Assembly (NCBI RefSeq): GCF_009707865.1
Contig: NZ_WMBA01000010.1
Location: 62,001-126,000 of the forward strand
DNA length: 64,000 nucleotides
DNA from: Amycolatopsis pithecellobii
Lineage (GTDB): Bacteria > Actinomycetota > Actinomycetes > Mycobacteriales > Pseudonocardiaceae
Direction of reading: 5' to 3'
Below, piece by piece: positions 156-26,870 of the stretch. Every line of letters begins with the position of its first letter. Positions within the stretch are counted from its first letter, which is position 1. Below the pieces are notes generated by a model, which saw only the letters and a program-made list of their open reading frames with translations, did no database searches and was not told where the DNA came from. The translations under genes were made by a program, and so were the position numbers.

Positions 156-1556
<1,401 letters not shown>

Positions 1557-1564
1557 GCCGGTCG

Positions 1565-1655
1565 TTACCAATCCGACGGCAGTCATGGCGGAAACTGGTG
1601 TCTATAGGCAGATGGGCTGCGGACCGTATCCGCCTACTTTCGGTCGGATTGGTAA
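1565..1655. repeat. Palindromic repeat, full copy A
   Basis: A 91-bp element bounded by perfect 13-bp terminal inverted repeats, TTACCAATCCGAC (1565-1577) and GTCGGATTGGTAA (1643-1655). On the minus strand the left end continues CGAAAGTAGGC and the right end is preceded by TGACTGCC. The same subterminal blocks occur in the copy at 26585-26674, and the left block also occurs at 19906-19941. The element fills nearly all of the gap between the convergent fumC and anti-sigma genes, so it could form a bidirectional terminator hairpin. It encodes no protein; it looks like a REP/MITE-type non-autonomous repeat. Confidence 0.85.
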
Positions 1656-1656
1656 G

Positions 1657-2382
1657 TCACGCGACGTCCCGGTGCGCGGCCGGTGGGCGGCGCTCCTGCC
1701 GGGACGTCGGCGCGTGACCGGGCTGGCCGAGCCGCGTCTGGGTTTTCGTACTCGTGCGCTGCCCGTCCGCCCGTCCGCCCGGCCACGGCCACCGGCCCTC
1801 CCGGGCGCCGATGAGCGCGGTGCACAACACCCCGAGCAGCAACGGCACGTGACTGGCCAGCCGGTACCAGCCGACCTCGCCGCCGATGAAGTCCACAGTG
1901 GACAGAACGGCGAGCACGAGCGTGAAGCTGAGCAACACCGGCAACTGAGTGCGCGCGTTGCGCGGCCGCGAGGCGACCCAGAGCAGTGCGACGCCGACCG
2001 CGAAGTTGAACGCGACCGCCTCGTGCTCGACGTGCGATCCCGGTTCGATCTGCATACCGCCGGGCATGGGCTGCGGCAGGAACAGTTCCGCAACCACGAT
2101 CGAGAACTGCGCGATCGCGGTGAGGACGAGCGCCCAGCGCGGCCAGTCGACCGGACCGGGCCGGCTCGGCGGCGCGAACCTGATCGCGGCGTCCCCGGCG
2201 AAGTCAGGCGTCTCGGTCGCCTTTTCCATCCGCACCAACCGGTTCACCGTCGCGGCTTCGTGCTGCCACGCGGTGCAGTCCGCACAGCCCGCGACGTGCG
2301 CGTCGAGCTCGGCCGGCGAGACCCCGGGGTCCTCGCCGTCCAGCATCGCCGAGATCGCCTCGCGCGCGGTTGAGCAGTCCAT
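1657..2382 (-). CDS. Zinc-finger (zf-HC2) membrane anti-sigma factor
   Basis: About 241 aa. The N-terminus has an HxxxCxxC zinc-binding motif (HVAGCADC, residues 29-36), the hallmark of ZAS-type anti-sigma factors that hold an ECF sigma factor. About four hydrophobic segments follow between residues 80 and 200, then a basic, Arg/Pro-rich cytosolic tail. A longer reading frame from 2403 exists, but the ATG at 2382 giving MDCSTAREAI is the natural start. It is divergent from the SigC-type sigma gene at 2490, which is its probable partner, and the promoter region is shared. What signal releases the sigma factor cannot be read from the sequence. Confidence 0.85.
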   Translation of the reverse strand: MDCSTAREAISAMLDGEDPGVSPAELDAHVAGCADCTAWQHEAATVNRLVRMEKATETPDFAGDAAIRFAPPSRPGPVDWPRWALVLTAIAQFSIVVAELFLPQPMPGGMQIEPGSHVEHEAVAFNFAVGVALLWVASRPRNARTQLPVLLSFTLVLAVLSTVDFIGGEVGWYRLASHVPLLLGVLCTALIGAREGRWPWPGGRADGQRTSTKTQTRLGQPGHAPTSRQERRPPAAHRDVA

Positions 2383-2489
2383 GTAATACACGTCGCCGGG
2401 CACGGTTGAATAGTTCCCAGCGGCGGTGAACCGGCCTCGCGCAGGGCCCGTTATCGTCAGTGGGGGCGGGCTCCAGGAAGGACGTCGCA

Positions 2490-3044
2490 GTGGACGACGA
2501 CGAGATCACCCGGGACGCCTTCGCAGCCTCCCGGGGTGACACAGCGGCCGCGGAACGGTTCGTCGCGGCGACTCAGCGGCAGCTGCACAGGTTGCTGAGT
2601 TACCTTTCGAACCCCGGGGTCGCCGAGGATTTGACGCAGGAGACGTACCTGCGCGCGTTCGCCGCGCTGGAGGGGTACGAGGGCCGGTCACCGGCGCGGA
2701 TGTGGTTGCTGGCGATCGGGAAGCGCGTCGCCGCGGATCACCTGCGCACCACGCGGCGCCGCCCGGTCACCGCCCAGACCGAGGACTGGATCGCGGCAGC
2801 CGAGCAGAATGGCGCCTACACCCCGGATCCTGGACGCATGGTGGCACTGCGGCGGTTGATCCTGGAGCTGGATGCCGAACGCCGGGACGCGTTCGTGCTG
2901 ACCCAGGTGGCCGGGCTGTCCTACGCCGAAGCGGCCGAGGTCTGCGACTGCGCGGTCGGCACGATCCGGTCGCGGGTGTTCCGGGCGCGCGAGGAGCTGA
3001 CGGAGGCACTGCGCACCGCCGAAAGGCTCGCCTCGAGCGGCTAG
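2490..3044 (+). CDS. sigC: ECF RNA polymerase sigma factor, SigC family
   Basis: 184-aa group 4 sigma factor. Region 2 is seen at DLTQETYLRAF (residues 47-57) and the ARMWLLAIGKRVAADHLR helix. Region 4 has the DNA-binding helix-turn-helix LSYAEAAEVCDCAVGTIRSR. These match the M. tuberculosis SigC layout. The GTG at 2490 was chosen because AGGAAGGA lies 7 bases upstream; an upstream GTG at 2460 lacks such a site. The zf-HC2 anti-sigma gene diverges from it. The stop codon shares the palindrome CTAG (3041-3044) with the stop of the convergent tetR gene. Confidence 0.9.
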   Translation: MDDDEITRDAFAASRGDTAAAERFVAATQRQLHRLLSYLSNPGVAEDLTQETYLRAFAALEGYEGRSPARMWLLAIGKRVAADHLRTTRRRPVTAQTEDWIAAAEQNGAYTPDPGRMVALRRLILELDAERRDAFVLTQVAGLSYAEAAEVCDCAVGTIRSRVFRAREELTEALRTAERLASSG

Positions 3045-16198: not shown

Positions 16199-16924
16199 CT
16201 ACCTCGCCTTCCACTCCTCGATCTGCTTGATGACCTGCGGCGTCACCCGGACCGCGAGGTTCGCGGTGCGATCGTCGTTGACCCGGCTGTGGATGCCCAC
16301 CGCCTTGGTGTCACTGACGGCCTGGTAACCGGCCACGGCGGCACCGCTTTGACCCGCTGACGTGGAAATGCGGTATTGCAGCAGGTGCTGATCGACCGCG
16401 GCGAGCGCCCCCGCGGCGTACCACATCGAGTTCTCCGGCGTCTTGTCGTCCGGGTACCCGGCGATCTGCCATTCGTTGCCGCGCAGCGTCGAGTCGTCCG
16501 CCGCGGTGAGCTGGTATCGCCCGACCGCGGCGGGCATCGAGGCGCTCAGCACCAGCAGGCTGTAGTCGTCCCGGGTGAGGTCCTTGTCGCGGTAGACGTC
16601 CAGCACGTGCCACTTGGCCGCGGTGAACGTGTTGAACGGGAGGTTGGCGGCGTCCCGTCCCGGTTGGAACTTCACTTTGGTCGCCAGACCGCCGAGATCC
16701 TTGTCGTAGACGGCATGTGCGGCTGTCACCACGTGTCTCTCCCCGATCGCGAATCCCGTGGACTCGCCTTCGGTCCCGTCCGGGAACGTCGCGGTCACCA
16801 GCCCGGTGGTGCACCAGGGCGAGGCGGAAGTCTGGGTGACGCGCTGCCGTTTGTCGGGCGGGAACGGCATCCCCACGCGAAGGCGGTGCGTCACCGGGAG
16901 TCGCTGTGCTGATGTGGGCGACAT
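16199..16924 (-). CDS. Trypsin-like serine peptidase without signal peptide
   Basis: 241 aa, S1/V8-type fold. The triad is readable: H70 in VTAAHAVYD, D120 in TRDDYSLLVL, and S193 in STSAGQSGAAV. The AGQSGAAV and GIHSR segments resemble Glu-specific V8-like peptidases. No signal peptide or membrane segment precedes the domain, which is unusual for this family and suggests an intracellular or activation-dependent protease. AAGGAGACC precedes the ATG. It lies 17 bases downstream of an unknown 468-aa gene on the same strand, so the two are almost certainly co-transcribed and may work together. Confidence 0.85.
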   Translation of the reverse strand: MSPTSAQRLPVTHRLRVGMPFPPDKRQRVTQTSASPWCTTGLVTATFPDGTEGESTGFAIGERHVVTAAHAVYDKDLGGLATKVKFQPGRDAANLPFNTFTAAKWHVLDVYRDKDLTRDDYSLLVLSASMPAAVGRYQLTAADDSTLRGNEWQIAGYPDDKTPENSMWYAAGALAAVDQHLLQYRISTSAGQSGAAVAGYQAVSDTKAVGIHSRVNDDRTANLAVRVTPQVIKQIEEWKAR

Positions 16925-16941
16925 AGCTGGTCTCCTTGTCG

Positions 16942-18348
16942 TCAGAGCTTGATCCGGCGTTTGGCGGGCTGAGCCTGGGGTTCACGCGGGGTCGGCAGGG
17001 CGCCATCCTCCACGTTCCGTTCCAGCGCGGCGAGGATTTCCCTGACCTCTTCACCGGACGCAAGCTCGAGAATGGGCGTGCCGTCGTCGTGGTAGCCCTT
17101 GAAAGACGGCGTTTCGGTCAGGGTGATCGTGTTGAGCAGGTCGAGCATCACGCCGAACTGTTGCGGCGTCCACTTTCCACTTTCCACATATCCCAGATAT
17201 CTCAGAACCTCCTTGTTCTTGGCGGCCACCTCGGTCGTGATCCGCTTCTGGAGCCCGTCGCTCTTCGCTTTCGTCACGCAGCCGGATTCTTTGAGCTGCA
17301 GGTCGTAGAAGAACTTCGAACTTTCCCCGCCGCACGGTATCGCCAGTGACATCGAGCTGGACATCAATACCGGGAGCTGCCCCTCGAAGGAAACCACCTC
17401 GTCGTAGGTGATCTCCTGATTGAAGAAGTTACTGATGTAGCTGGTGTTCACATTGACGGTGAACGGCAGCAGCTTGGCCGCCCAATTGTCGTCCTTCGAC
17501 GGTTCCTGCGGCGTCGGATTGGGCTCGAACTTGAACAATCCTTCACCGGAGGTGATCTGTTTGTTGATCGCCTCGAACATGGCCTTGGTGCTGTTGAGCA
17601 TCTGCCAGCCGAATTCGCTGCTGCCGCTTCCCTGGCGGTACTTTATGGTGACGATACCCTTCGAAATGAGCTCCTGGGTGATCTTGTCGACGTCGACGCC
17701 CAGATTGAACCAGCCGATGTTCGCACCCACCTTGACCTGGCTGCGGGTGTACTCCCAGACCTTGCTCAGGTCGGCGTGGATCTCCGCCACCCAGGGGTCG
17801 GCGTAGAGGCTGGCCGTGCCGTAGATGTTCACCGCGAACTCGGGTACCGGTTCCGCCGTGGCGAGTTCGGCGCCGACCAGCTCGGCGAACAGGCTGTTGC
17901 TCGCGCCGACCTCGTAGTTGAACTGCGACCCGAGGGTCACCTGATTGGGGAAGGTCGCGGTGCCACCCGTGCCGGACTCGACGATGTGCTTGGCGAAGAT
18001 CGGCTGCACTGTCACGTCGTCCAGCACGATCGGGACCAGGACGGGCTTCTTGATGTTGTATCGCTTCTGGATCTCCTCGGTGATGTTGGCACGCTGGGCG
18101 GCGGTCATGTCGGCGACGGCGGCGCCTTTCAAGATGCCGCCACAACAGCTCTTGTACACCAAGTTTCCGTAGTCGACCCAGTATGGCTGGGCGTTGATGC
18201 CGTAGTACTTGACTTCGAATTTCCGCAGCGTCTCACCGAGAACCGAGTCAATACGGAGGGGAAAGTAATGAAACATTTCCGGATTGTCGTAATCCTGGTA
18301 AGCGACCACGCCGTCCGTGGCCGCAGGTCTGTTCAAACGTCCAGCCAT
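16942..18348 (-). CDS. Uncharacterised 468-aa protein, partner of the trypsin-like peptidase
   Basis: I do not recognise the family. The chain is soluble, without signal peptide or membrane segments. It looks beta-rich in the middle (GVDVDKI, IVTIKYRQGSGSSEFGW, PFTVNVNTSYISNFF). The N-terminus has an aromatic motif AYQDYDNPEMFHYFPL, a KSCCGG cysteine pair near residue 66, and a helical region with TEEIQKRYNIKKP. The basic, Pro-rich C-terminus ends KRRIKL. The region looks less GC-rich than its neighbours by eye. A GGGAGA site precedes the ATG at 18348, and the peptidase follows after 17 bases. Possible roles are a target, inhibitor or scaffold of the peptidase, but none is shown. Confidence 0.85.
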   Translation of the reverse strand: MAGRLNRPAATDGVVAYQDYDNPEMFHYFPLRIDSVLGETLRKFEVKYYGINAQPYWVDYGNLVYKSCCGGILKGAAVADMTAAQRANITEEIQKRYNIKKPVLVPIVLDDVTVQPIFAKHIVESGTGGTATFPNQVTLGSQFNYEVGASNSLFAELVGAELATAEPVPEFAVNIYGTASLYADPWVAEIHADLSKVWEYTRSQVKVGANIGWFNLGVDVDKITQELISKGIVTIKYRQGSGSSEFGWQMLNSTKAMFEAINKQITSGEGLFKFEPNPTPQEPSKDDNWAAKLLPFTVNVNTSYISNFFNQEITYDEVVSFEGQLPVLMSSSMSLAIPCGGESSKFFYDLQLKESGCVTKAKSDGLQKRITTEVAAKNKEVLRYLGYVESGKWTPQQFGVMLDLLNTITLTETPSFKGYHDDGTPILELASGEEVREILAALERNVEDGALPTPREPQAQPAKRRIKL

Positions 18349-19905: not shown

Positions 19906-19941
19906 CTGACCGTGTCCGCCGACTTTCGGTCGGATTGGTAA
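19906..19941. repeat. Palindromic repeat, half copy B
   Basis: Ends in GTCGGATTGGTAA (19929-19941), identical to the right terminal repeat of copy A. Inward it shares ACTTTCGG and the CCG/GGC block, about 36 bases in all. No matching second terminus was found nearby, so this is a truncated or recombined copy. It abuts the acyl-CoA oxidase-like remnant. The following 19942-20103 shows no convincing gene. Confidence 0.7.
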
Positions 19942-25975: not shown

Positions 25976-26870
25976 ATGAACGTGCTGCCCATCTGCCAAA
26001 CGTGCGGCATGCAGTACGCCGCCCCTCGGTCCGACTGCCCGATCTGTACGGACGAGCGCCAGTACGTGCCAGTGTCCGGTCAGCAGTGGACCGATCTCGA
26101 TACCTTGCGCGCCAGTGAGTACACCGGGCTCGTGCGCGAGGAGGGGCCCGGCGTCATCGGCGTCGGGTGCGAGCCGAAGTTCGCGATCGGGCAGCGGGCG
26201 TTGCTCGTCAAGGCCGCGTCCGGCAACTTCCTGTGGGACTGTGTCGCCTACCTCGACGACGAACTGGTCGCCACGATCACTGCGCACGGCGGGATCACCG
26301 GGATCGCGATCAGTCATCCGCACTACTACACCACGGTGATCGACTGGGCTCGCACCTTCGATGTGCCGGTCTACCTGCACGAGAAGGACCGTGAATGGCT
26401 CGGCAGGCCCGATCCGGCCGTCGAATGGTGGAGCGGTGAGACCAAACAGCTCACCGAGGACCTGAGGCTGGTCAACCTCGGCGTGCACTTCGCGGGCGGC
26501 ACCGTGCTGCACTGGTCTCAAGGCCAGGGCACGCTGCTGTCCGGCGACATCGTGCAGGTCATCCCGGACCGCAAATTCGTCGCAGTACCAAGCCGGCCGA
26601 AAGTAGGCCGGGCCGACCAACCGCCAGCAGAGCTACATTTCGGCGATCGCCGTGACTGCCGGCCGGCTTGGTAACCGTTGGCACAGTATGTACAGCTACC
26701 CGAATCTCATCCCGGAGCGGCCGCCGGTCGTCCGCCGCGCGGCGGAAATCCTTGCGGGCTACCGGTTCGAGGCGATCTACGGCGCGTGGTGGGACGCGGT
26801 CATCCGCGCTGACGGCGAGGAGATCGTGCAGCGCTCGGCGAAGCGCTACTTGGATTTCGTGTCGTCGTAA
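25976..26870 (+). pseudogene. MBL-fold hydrolase gene split by palindromic repeat copy C
   Basis: The first part (ATG 25976) starts with a zinc-ribbon-like CQTCGMQY...CPICTDERQYVP. It continues as an MBL-fold chain with SHPHYYTTVIDWARTFDVPVYLHEKDREW and SGDIVQVIPDRKFV. At 26585 the palindromic repeat begins and the frame then runs to a stop inside it (26674). The continuation WHSMYSYPNLIPERPPVVRRAAEILAGYRFEAIYGAWWDAV resumes in another frame after the repeat and ends at 26870. In relatives VIPDR and MYSYPN are only a few residues apart. The gene is therefore interrupted and probably inactive, unless a truncated domain works alone. Its last 25 bases overlap the convergent asnC-type gene. Confidence 0.82.
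26585..26674. repeat. Palindromic repeat, full copy C
   Basis: About 90 bp with terminal repeats GTACCAAGCCGGC and GCCGGCTTGGTAA (12 of 13 pair). Subterminal CGAAAGTAGGC and TGACTGCC match copy A (1565-1655, opposite strand). Relative to copy A, both arms differ at two positions and the changes are complementary, so the stem is preserved. It lies inside an MBL-fold gene and breaks its frame. Confidence 0.82.

What the first reader, a model, noticed from the sequence alone, without database searches (positions are those of the whole stretch)
1565..1655. A ~90-bp palindromic repeat family with covarying terminal repeats
Copies at 1565-1655 and 26585-26674 (opposite orientation), plus a half copy at 19906-19941, share 13-bp termini and subterminal CGAAAGT and TGACTGCC blocks. 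Between the two full copies each terminal arm differs at two positions, and the changes are complementary, so the stem is kept while the sequence drifts. This implies selection for a hairpin, as in REP/RAYT-type elements or MITEs recognised by a host transposase. No transposase is in the window.
Basis: partly seen in the sequence, partly recalled or inferred. Interest (0 to 1): 0.72.

Follow-up and report, generated by a model that had tools for sequence, protein, structure and literature searches.

The report
Mobile hairpin repeat in Amycolatopsis genomes
A 100-base hairpin-forming DNA repeat has spread to dozens of places in soil actinobacteria, and one base at the foot of its hairpin tends to match the base next to where it landed, as if the repeat helped choose its landing site by base pairing.

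Summary
The repeat is a roughly 102-nt mobile element: leader CTGTGCCGTTCG, foot base T, then a covarying 12-bp stem closed by the right-end TA. At least 79 near-full copies lie in the window's own genome (an Amycolatopsis, judged from relatives). It occurs in further Amycolatopsis species, and GTAG-tagged cousins of about 95 nt occur in other genera of the same family. Copy 2 interrupts an apparent reading frame whose sequence is continuous in 15 relatives. Empty sites (flanks up to 98% identical) show insertion after a dinucleotide, most often TA, without matching terminal repeats. The foot base tends to be complementary to the target base next to the insertion: T-A in Amycolatopsis, A-T and G-C in another genus (permutation p <= 5e-5 in each set). 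That base pre-exists: A in 15 of 19 gapless empty sites. The layout resembles GTAG-REP and IS200/IS605 ends, but 24 of 26 tested carriers show no Y1 transposase, and no autonomous copy was found. I call it a new REP-like single-strand mobile element family, moved in trans by an unidentified enzyme. Mobility, hairpin constraint and foot-target complementarity are shown; the single-strand mechanism is inferred.

The parts
1551..1552 (+). target dinucleotide TA left of copy 1
   Evidence: sequence; boundary inferred from empty sites at other copies
1553..1654 (+). copy 1, element body, 102 nt (leader CTGAGCCGGTCG, foot T1565, hairpin, right-end TA)
1565..1577 (+). 5' arm of copy 1, TTACCAATCCGAC; T1565 is the foot base
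1643..1655 (+). 3' arm of copy 1; A1655 is read as flanking target DNA pairing with the foot base
19906..19940 (+). truncated copy: right end only
   Evidence: no left end (up to 6 mismatches) within the 11-kb locus L289
26586..26686 (-). copy 2, element body, 101 nt, interrupting an apparent reading frame whose sequence is continuous in relatives
26662..26674 (-). 5' arm of copy 2 (read on the minus strand)
26585..26597 (-). 3' arm of copy 2 with flank base
26687..26688 (-). target dinucleotide TA left of copy 2

Best explanation
The repeat is a non-autonomous, REP-like mobile element. One strand folds into a long hairpin preceded by a leader of about 12 nt and a single foot base. An enzyme supplied in trans, not identified here, recognises the folded element and inserts it 3' of a dinucleotide (mostly TA, usually YR). 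The hairpin foot helps choose the target: the foot base pairs with the first target base 3' of the insertion point, next to the closing TA pair. Shown by tools: mobility, ends, hairpin covariation, target preference, foot-target complementarity. Inferred: that the substrate is single-stranded, that pairing happens during target capture, and that one dedicated enzyme does it.
For: Mobility: copy 2 is absent from the orthologous place in 15 of 18 relatives; the other 3 (G004, G008, G016) could not be read at the junction. Empty-site hits exist for 43 sites, of which 30 are usable and 20 gapless, with flanks up to 98% identical. Hairpin. Asymmetric ends: conserved leader only on the left. At the 10 gapless non-TA targets the right TA never equals the target dinucleotide, the left one does in 2; over 127 copies the right dinucleotide is TA in 120, the left in 76. 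Foot pairing, other genera: 77 independent sites, 49 of 76 scored are Watson-Crick against 35.1 expected, 0 of 50,000 permutations; A-T 38, G-C 6 of 6, T-A 4 of 4. Twenty of the 76 were first found with model R1, which contains this pair; the 56 found only with R2, which does not, give 38 against 30.7, 11 of 50,000. Own genome, found by patterns that leave out the flank base: 59 of 69 against 51.5, p 5e-5. The base pre-exists in the target: A in 15 of 19 gapless empty sites with foot T, against 9% of bases after TA and 19% after YR in the window; one copy with foot A sits before a T found in the 3 of 5 relatives that align there. GTAG tag in 72 of 80 cousins.
Against: No enzyme found. Pairing is imperfect: 38 of 61 A-foot sites have T, and C-foot gives G in only 1 of 5. 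The next base out shows no covariation in the own genome (37 against 37.3; G nearly fixed, so barely testable), and in the other genera the base facing that G is C in only 12 of 80. Which strand is active is unclear: wobble counts favour the minus strand in Amycolatopsis (52 against 15; 98 against 60 expected in shuffles) but little in the other genera (53 against 36), whereas the GTAG tag would suggest the plus strand. At 8 of 10 gapless non-TA sites the left dinucleotide also differs from the empty site, and at 2 of 10 TA sites the left one is not TA. Many targets look like stop codons (by eye), which alone could raise A there in Amycolatopsis. The two foot types are partly confounded with lineage; the within-lineage cases (G-C 6, T-A 4, own-genome A-T 2 of 4) carry the argument.
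Confidence: 0.6

Rival explanations
1. A TA-duplicating MITE of the ERIC, Correia or RUP kind, moved by a DDE transposase such as an IS630 relative; the TA at each end is a 2-bp target duplication.
For: Size, TA at both ends, palindromic layout and empty sites with TA fit. Bacterial MITEs of about 100-200 bp, most with terminal TA and target duplication, are described (PMC2229807, passages).
Against: Ends are not inverted repeats of each other: 13 nt lie outside the repeat on the left, none on the right. At 10 of 10 gapless non-TA targets the right TA is not the target's, though the left equals it in only 2. IS630-like (PF13358) loci, 8 in 5 of 8 genomes (2 in the own genome), have end matches at chance level. 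A double-strand mechanism does not explain foot-flank complementarity.
Confidence: 0.15
2. A REP family whose RAYT/Y1 transposase has been lost or lies in assembly gaps; copies were spread by it earlier.
For: GTAG tag one base 5' of the stem in 72 of 80 cousins, and a common internal mismatch (TCC/TTC in 51 of 80); Y1 genes exist in 3 of 41 genomes tested.
Against: 24 of 26 carriers tested show no Y1, including the one-contig genomes G021 and G157. Sites with flanks 96-98% identical differ in occupation where the carrier shows no Y1. None of the four Y1 loci in carriers bears the ends.
Confidence: 0.17
3. Arm complementarity is kept by a mutational process (template switching within a quasi-palindrome), not by selection.
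For: Such correction is known in general (recalled, no call) and would give paired changes.
Against: Mismatched stretches stay conserved instead of being corrected; mismatches of wobble type are present.
Confidence: 0.08
4. A cis-acting RNA element such as a terminator or regulator.
For: Strong RNA folds (z -2.7 to -9.3).
Against: Little orientation or convergence bias around the 94 of 127 copies that could be scored with a simple coding test: 32 ++, 23 --, 21 divergent, 18 convergent; no Rfam match for the window or for four other-genus copies; non-orthologous sites.
Confidence: 0.04

Closest known systems
GTAG-tagged REP elements with TnpA_REP/RAYT (PMC3733652, PMC8266576, PMC6006769; passages read)
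   Same: Palindromic, many copies, a tetranucleotide just 5' of the hairpin foot (GTAG in the other-genus cousins), conserved mismatches in the stem.
   Different: Hairpin of about 80-90 nt instead of 20-40; a leader and discrete ends; tag is not GTAG in Amycolatopsis; no RAYT found in 24 of 26 tested carriers. The word Actinobacteria has 0 occurrences in the main text of these three papers.
IS200/IS605 transposons, IS608 (PMC5934647; passages read), and their non-autonomous derivatives (listing only)
   Same: Folded ends, insertion 3' of a short target, target choice by base pairing with bases at the hairpin foot.
   Different: One hairpin, no tnpA or tnpB, preference for only about three bases, no Y1 gene found in most tested carriers.
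ERIC, Correia/NEMIS, RUP (PMC2229807; passages read)
   Same: About 100-130 bp, palindromic, TA at ends.
   Different: No matching terminal inverted repeats at both ends; the right TA does not come from the target at non-TA targets.

Membership tests
GTAG-REP / RAYT system | GTAG or GTGG tag 0-2 nt 5' of the stem | tested here: inconclusive
   GTAG in 72 of 80 copies from other genera; the window's copies carry GTCG and ACGG instead.
GTAG-REP / RAYT system | short stem-loop of about 20-40 nt (21-65 in PMC6006769) | tested here: not met
   Hairpin of 86-92 nt in the own genome.
GTAG-REP / RAYT system | cognate RAYT/Y1 gene in the genome | tested here: not met
   PF01797: 0 in G000, G004, G007, G009; present in only 2 of 22 further carriers. 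G162 was not tested.
GTAG-REP / RAYT system | transposase gene flanked by the repeats | tested here: not met
   The four Y1 loci in carriers, L385-L388, carry no element ends (up to 6-7 mismatches).
IS200/IS605-derived element | insertion 3' of a fixed short target, no target duplication | tested here: inconclusive
   Right TA not from the target at 10 of 10 gapless non-TA sites; left equals target in 2 of 10.
IS200/IS605-derived element | guide bases at the hairpin foot pair with the target | tested here: met
   One base, two data sets; statistical, not biochemical, and not the tetranucleotide guide of IS608.
IS200/IS605-derived element | Y1 TnpA acts on it | tested here: not met
   No Y1 match in 24 of 26 tested carriers.
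TA-duplicating MITE (ERIC, Correia, RUP) | terminal inverted repeats at both ends | tested here: not met
   Left end has 13 nt outside the repeat.
TA-duplicating MITE (ERIC, Correia, RUP) | TA target duplication | tested here: inconclusive
   At TA targets TA stands on both sides (left 8 of 10, right 10 of 10); at non-TA targets the right TA is not from the target.
TA-duplicating MITE (ERIC, Correia, RUP) | related full-length IS with the same ends | tested here: not met
   IS630-like DDE_3 loci in 5 of 8 genomes, end matches at chance level. Other DDE families were not tested.
Integron attC site | attC core sites and an integron integrase | not tested
   Considered from memory only; the foot sequence does not look like the recalled attC core.

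The most novel reading that the evidence does not exclude
A single-strand transposition system that works without the Y1/HUH enzymes known to move REP and IS200/IS605 elements: a stand-alone DNA hairpin with a self-encoded one-base guide, moved by a still unknown actinobacterial enzyme.
Probability: 0.3. Interest if true: 0.82.

Novelty: new variant of a known kind. Interest (0 to 1): 0.62.

Why it matters
Target choice by DNA-DNA pairing is established for IS608 (PMC5934647, passages), and cleavage-site choice by the REP tag was shown for one REP system, while similar attempts in two others did not succeed (PMC8266576, passages). Here it appears as natural covariation between a repeat and its landing sites in several genera, in a bacterial family where the listings of my searches showed no earlier description. 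If it runs without a Y1 enzyme, there is a further class of mobilising enzyme to find. The dozens of copies per genome are also ready markers for strain comparison in antibiotic-producing actinobacteria.

Tried and rejected
Autonomous copy: left-only and right-only ends in the own genome (20 loci) and in two other genera (16 loci) gave full, truncated or internally deleted copies only. One apparent 0.7-kb unit (L290) is a TetR-like gene (my reading of the translation, no family search) between two partial copies. IS630 source: rejected. Truncation from one end only, as in retroposons: rejected, both halves occur alone. The first empty-site alignment was misaligned and was replaced. A reading with a 3-4 nt target loss was dropped when closer relatives fitted without gaps. 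Lagging-strand bias: looked at by eye for G021 from the strands; no bias seen, but the origin position was assumed, so it is not counted. Plasmids (both types), phages (other-genus type) and viral contigs (one exact pattern): no match. Named-species copies come from an exact two-arm pattern, which favours perfect ends; they enter only (all 127 copies pooled), the 127-copy count and the empty-site comparison, not the foot permutation tests. Rows dropped: the 49-nt copy and one of two tandem copies at L039 from alignment A1; one member of each of three shared sites and one row with a gap, 13 of 43 sites (hits with more than one gap near the junction, hits that are themselves copies, and one member of each of three shared pairs: 96, 98 and 119). 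The whole window was not scanned for transposase genes, and HUH, IS110, IS607 and recombinase families other than PF01797 and PF13358 were not searched in any genome.

Full report
What is there. Four right-end matches in 64 kb compare with 0.09 expected; they are the three elements plus the second arm of copy 2. In the whole genome (7.9 Mb, 144 contigs) the right-end motif has 130 matches with up to 3 mismatches, against 22 for the reversed pattern. From these I extracted 71 copies, 70 of them 86-92 nt, and 9 more full copies came from a left-end search. The copies fall into three sequence groups by eye. The conserved unit is longer than first described: TACTGTGCCGTTCG precedes the 5' arm with a sharp outer edge, while conservation fades right after the 3' arm, apart from a weak C.

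Where it occurs. An exact two-arm pattern hits 4 of 100 genomes searched, own genome included (36 copies; the three others 8-15), all in one genus. In the species collection all 75 hit stretches carry Amycolatopsis titles. A covariance model then found matches in 11 of 90 genomes and 8 of 46 genera of the family, own genome included, 44 candidates scored per genome and several genomes with one weak match only. The cousins in other genera are mostly about 95 nt and read CTGTGCCG-GTAG-A-TACCAATCCGACC...GGTC-TTC-TTGGTA. A second model, built from 21 of them, finds matches in 4 of 4 genomes of one such genus, 29-55 per genome, a number that counts many copies on both strands because they are palindromic. 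GTAG is present in 72 of 80 aligned copies, and a 3x3 mismatch TCC/TTC in 51 of 80. No match was found in plasmids (both types), phages (other-genus type) or viral contigs (one exact pattern), nor in Rfam (window; four other-genus copies).

Hairpin. On 69 own-genome copies, the window's two among them, the structure (17 pairs, the foot-flank pair and one further outer pair included) forms in 93.7% of cells; 8 pairs have two-sided changes (shuffles 3.7, 1 of 500 as high), 29 cells (5.1), score 0.115 (0.059), 0 of 500 each. Sliding the partner drops pairing to 46.4% or less and the score to 0.062 or less. The inner three-pair helix shows no covariation. Over 127 copies, 1562 of 1651 arm cells are Watson-Crick against 1432 in shuffles. 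Individual folds are stronger than shuffles with RNA and DNA parameters on both strands.

Mobility and ends. Copy 2 (minus strand) sits inside an apparent reading frame; 15 of 18 relatives have the same sequence without it, and 3 could not be read at the junction. Copy 1 lies at the very end of a fumarase/aspartase-like gene (Lyase_1 and FumaraseC_C), and its first bases now supply the stop codon. Flanks of 12 own-genome and 24 named-species copies were searched against relatives and aligned together with all other loci held. Hits exist for 43 sites; with one best relative per site 30 were usable and 20 gapless. The target dinucleotide in these 20 is TA in 10, otherwise TG 3, CG 2, GA 2, CA, TC, GC. 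The right-end TA of the element is not the target's at any of the 10 non-TA sites; the left dinucleotide equals the target's in 2 of those 10. At the 10 TA sites the left one is TA in 8. Across 127 copies the right dinucleotide is TA in 120 and the left in 76; in 64 own-genome copies the left one is mostly YR. The simplest reading is insertion 3' of a dinucleotide with no duplication, but the left side fits only in part, and a TA duplication cannot be told apart at TA targets.

Foot and target. The base just 5' of the stem (foot) and the first base after the right TA are unpaired in model R2. In the other-genera set, 77 independent sites, 49 of 76 scored pairs are Watson-Crick against 35.1 expected, 0 of 50,000 permutations: A-T 38, A-A 16, G-C 6, T-A 4, A-C 4, C-T 3, A-G 3, C-G 1, C-A 1. 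Twenty of these were first found with R1, which includes the pair; the other 56 give 38 against 30.7, 11 of 50,000. In the own genome, 59 of 69 against 51.5, p 5e-5: T-A 56, T-G 4, T-C 2, A-T 2, A-C 2, G-A 1, G-G 1, C-G 1. The flank base belongs to the target: with foot T, 15 of 19 gapless empty sites have A there (G 3, C 1), whereas in the window A follows TA in 9% and YR in 19%. The own-genome copy L011 with foot A sits before a T that the 3 relatives aligning there (of 5) share at the empty site. Closely similar copies keep foot A before different flanks, which argues against copying of the flank into the foot. A caveat is that targets in Amycolatopsis are often stop codons by eye, which end in A or G; the other genus, where T is preferred, does not share that explanation. 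The next base out shows no covariation.

Mover. No Y1_Tnp (PF01797) match in the own genome or the three other strict-pattern carriers (G004, G007, G009); 1 of 19 genus genomes has one, G012, which has no element match. Of 22 further carriers 2 have Y1 genes, G122 and G045, and none of these four loci carries element ends. IS630-like genes are few and their ends match at chance level. Truncated ends led to no autonomous copy. Sites whose flanks are 96-98% identical differ in occupation where the carrier shows no Y1, which suggests recent movement without it.

Function in the cell. Around 94 of 127 copies with scorable neighbours, gene orientations are fairly even, so a terminator or regulator role is not indicated. 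Tandem head-to-tail arrays with a 102-bp period occur.

Verdict. It works like a REP or IS200/IS605 end: folded element, tag and foot 5' of the stem, target picked in part by pairing (compare PMC5934647, PMC8266576, PMC6006769, passages). It is not a proven member, because size and cognate enzyme fail. I file it as a new variant of a known kind.

Noticed in passing
G000:C82 about 16665-16970 (L284 4665-4970) and G000:C100 about 177580-177790 (L039): Head-to-tail tandem arrays of the element, period 102 bp, three and two copies, sharing the bases at the joint.
   Followed up: partly
window 1551-1556: The start of copy 1 provides the present stop codon (TAC TGA) of the upstream fumarase/aspartase-like gene, so the insertion may have hit its original stop codon.
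   Followed up: partly
L290 5260-6017: A TetR-like regulator gene (by eye) lies between two partial copies; looks like a composite unit but reads as two separate damaged copies.
   Followed up: partly
L275 (G007:C19:278180-278600): The place orthologous to one own-genome copy carries in G007 an unrelated insert of about 130 nt.
   Followed up: no
window 1660-3041: A protein with a putative zinc-finger (zf-HC2, anti-sigma-like) next to a protein with sigma-70 regions 2 and 4.
   Followed up: no
L449 6001 and L451 4001: In two genomes of the other genus the same truncated left end is followed by nearly the same sequence, an inherited remnant.
   Followed up: no
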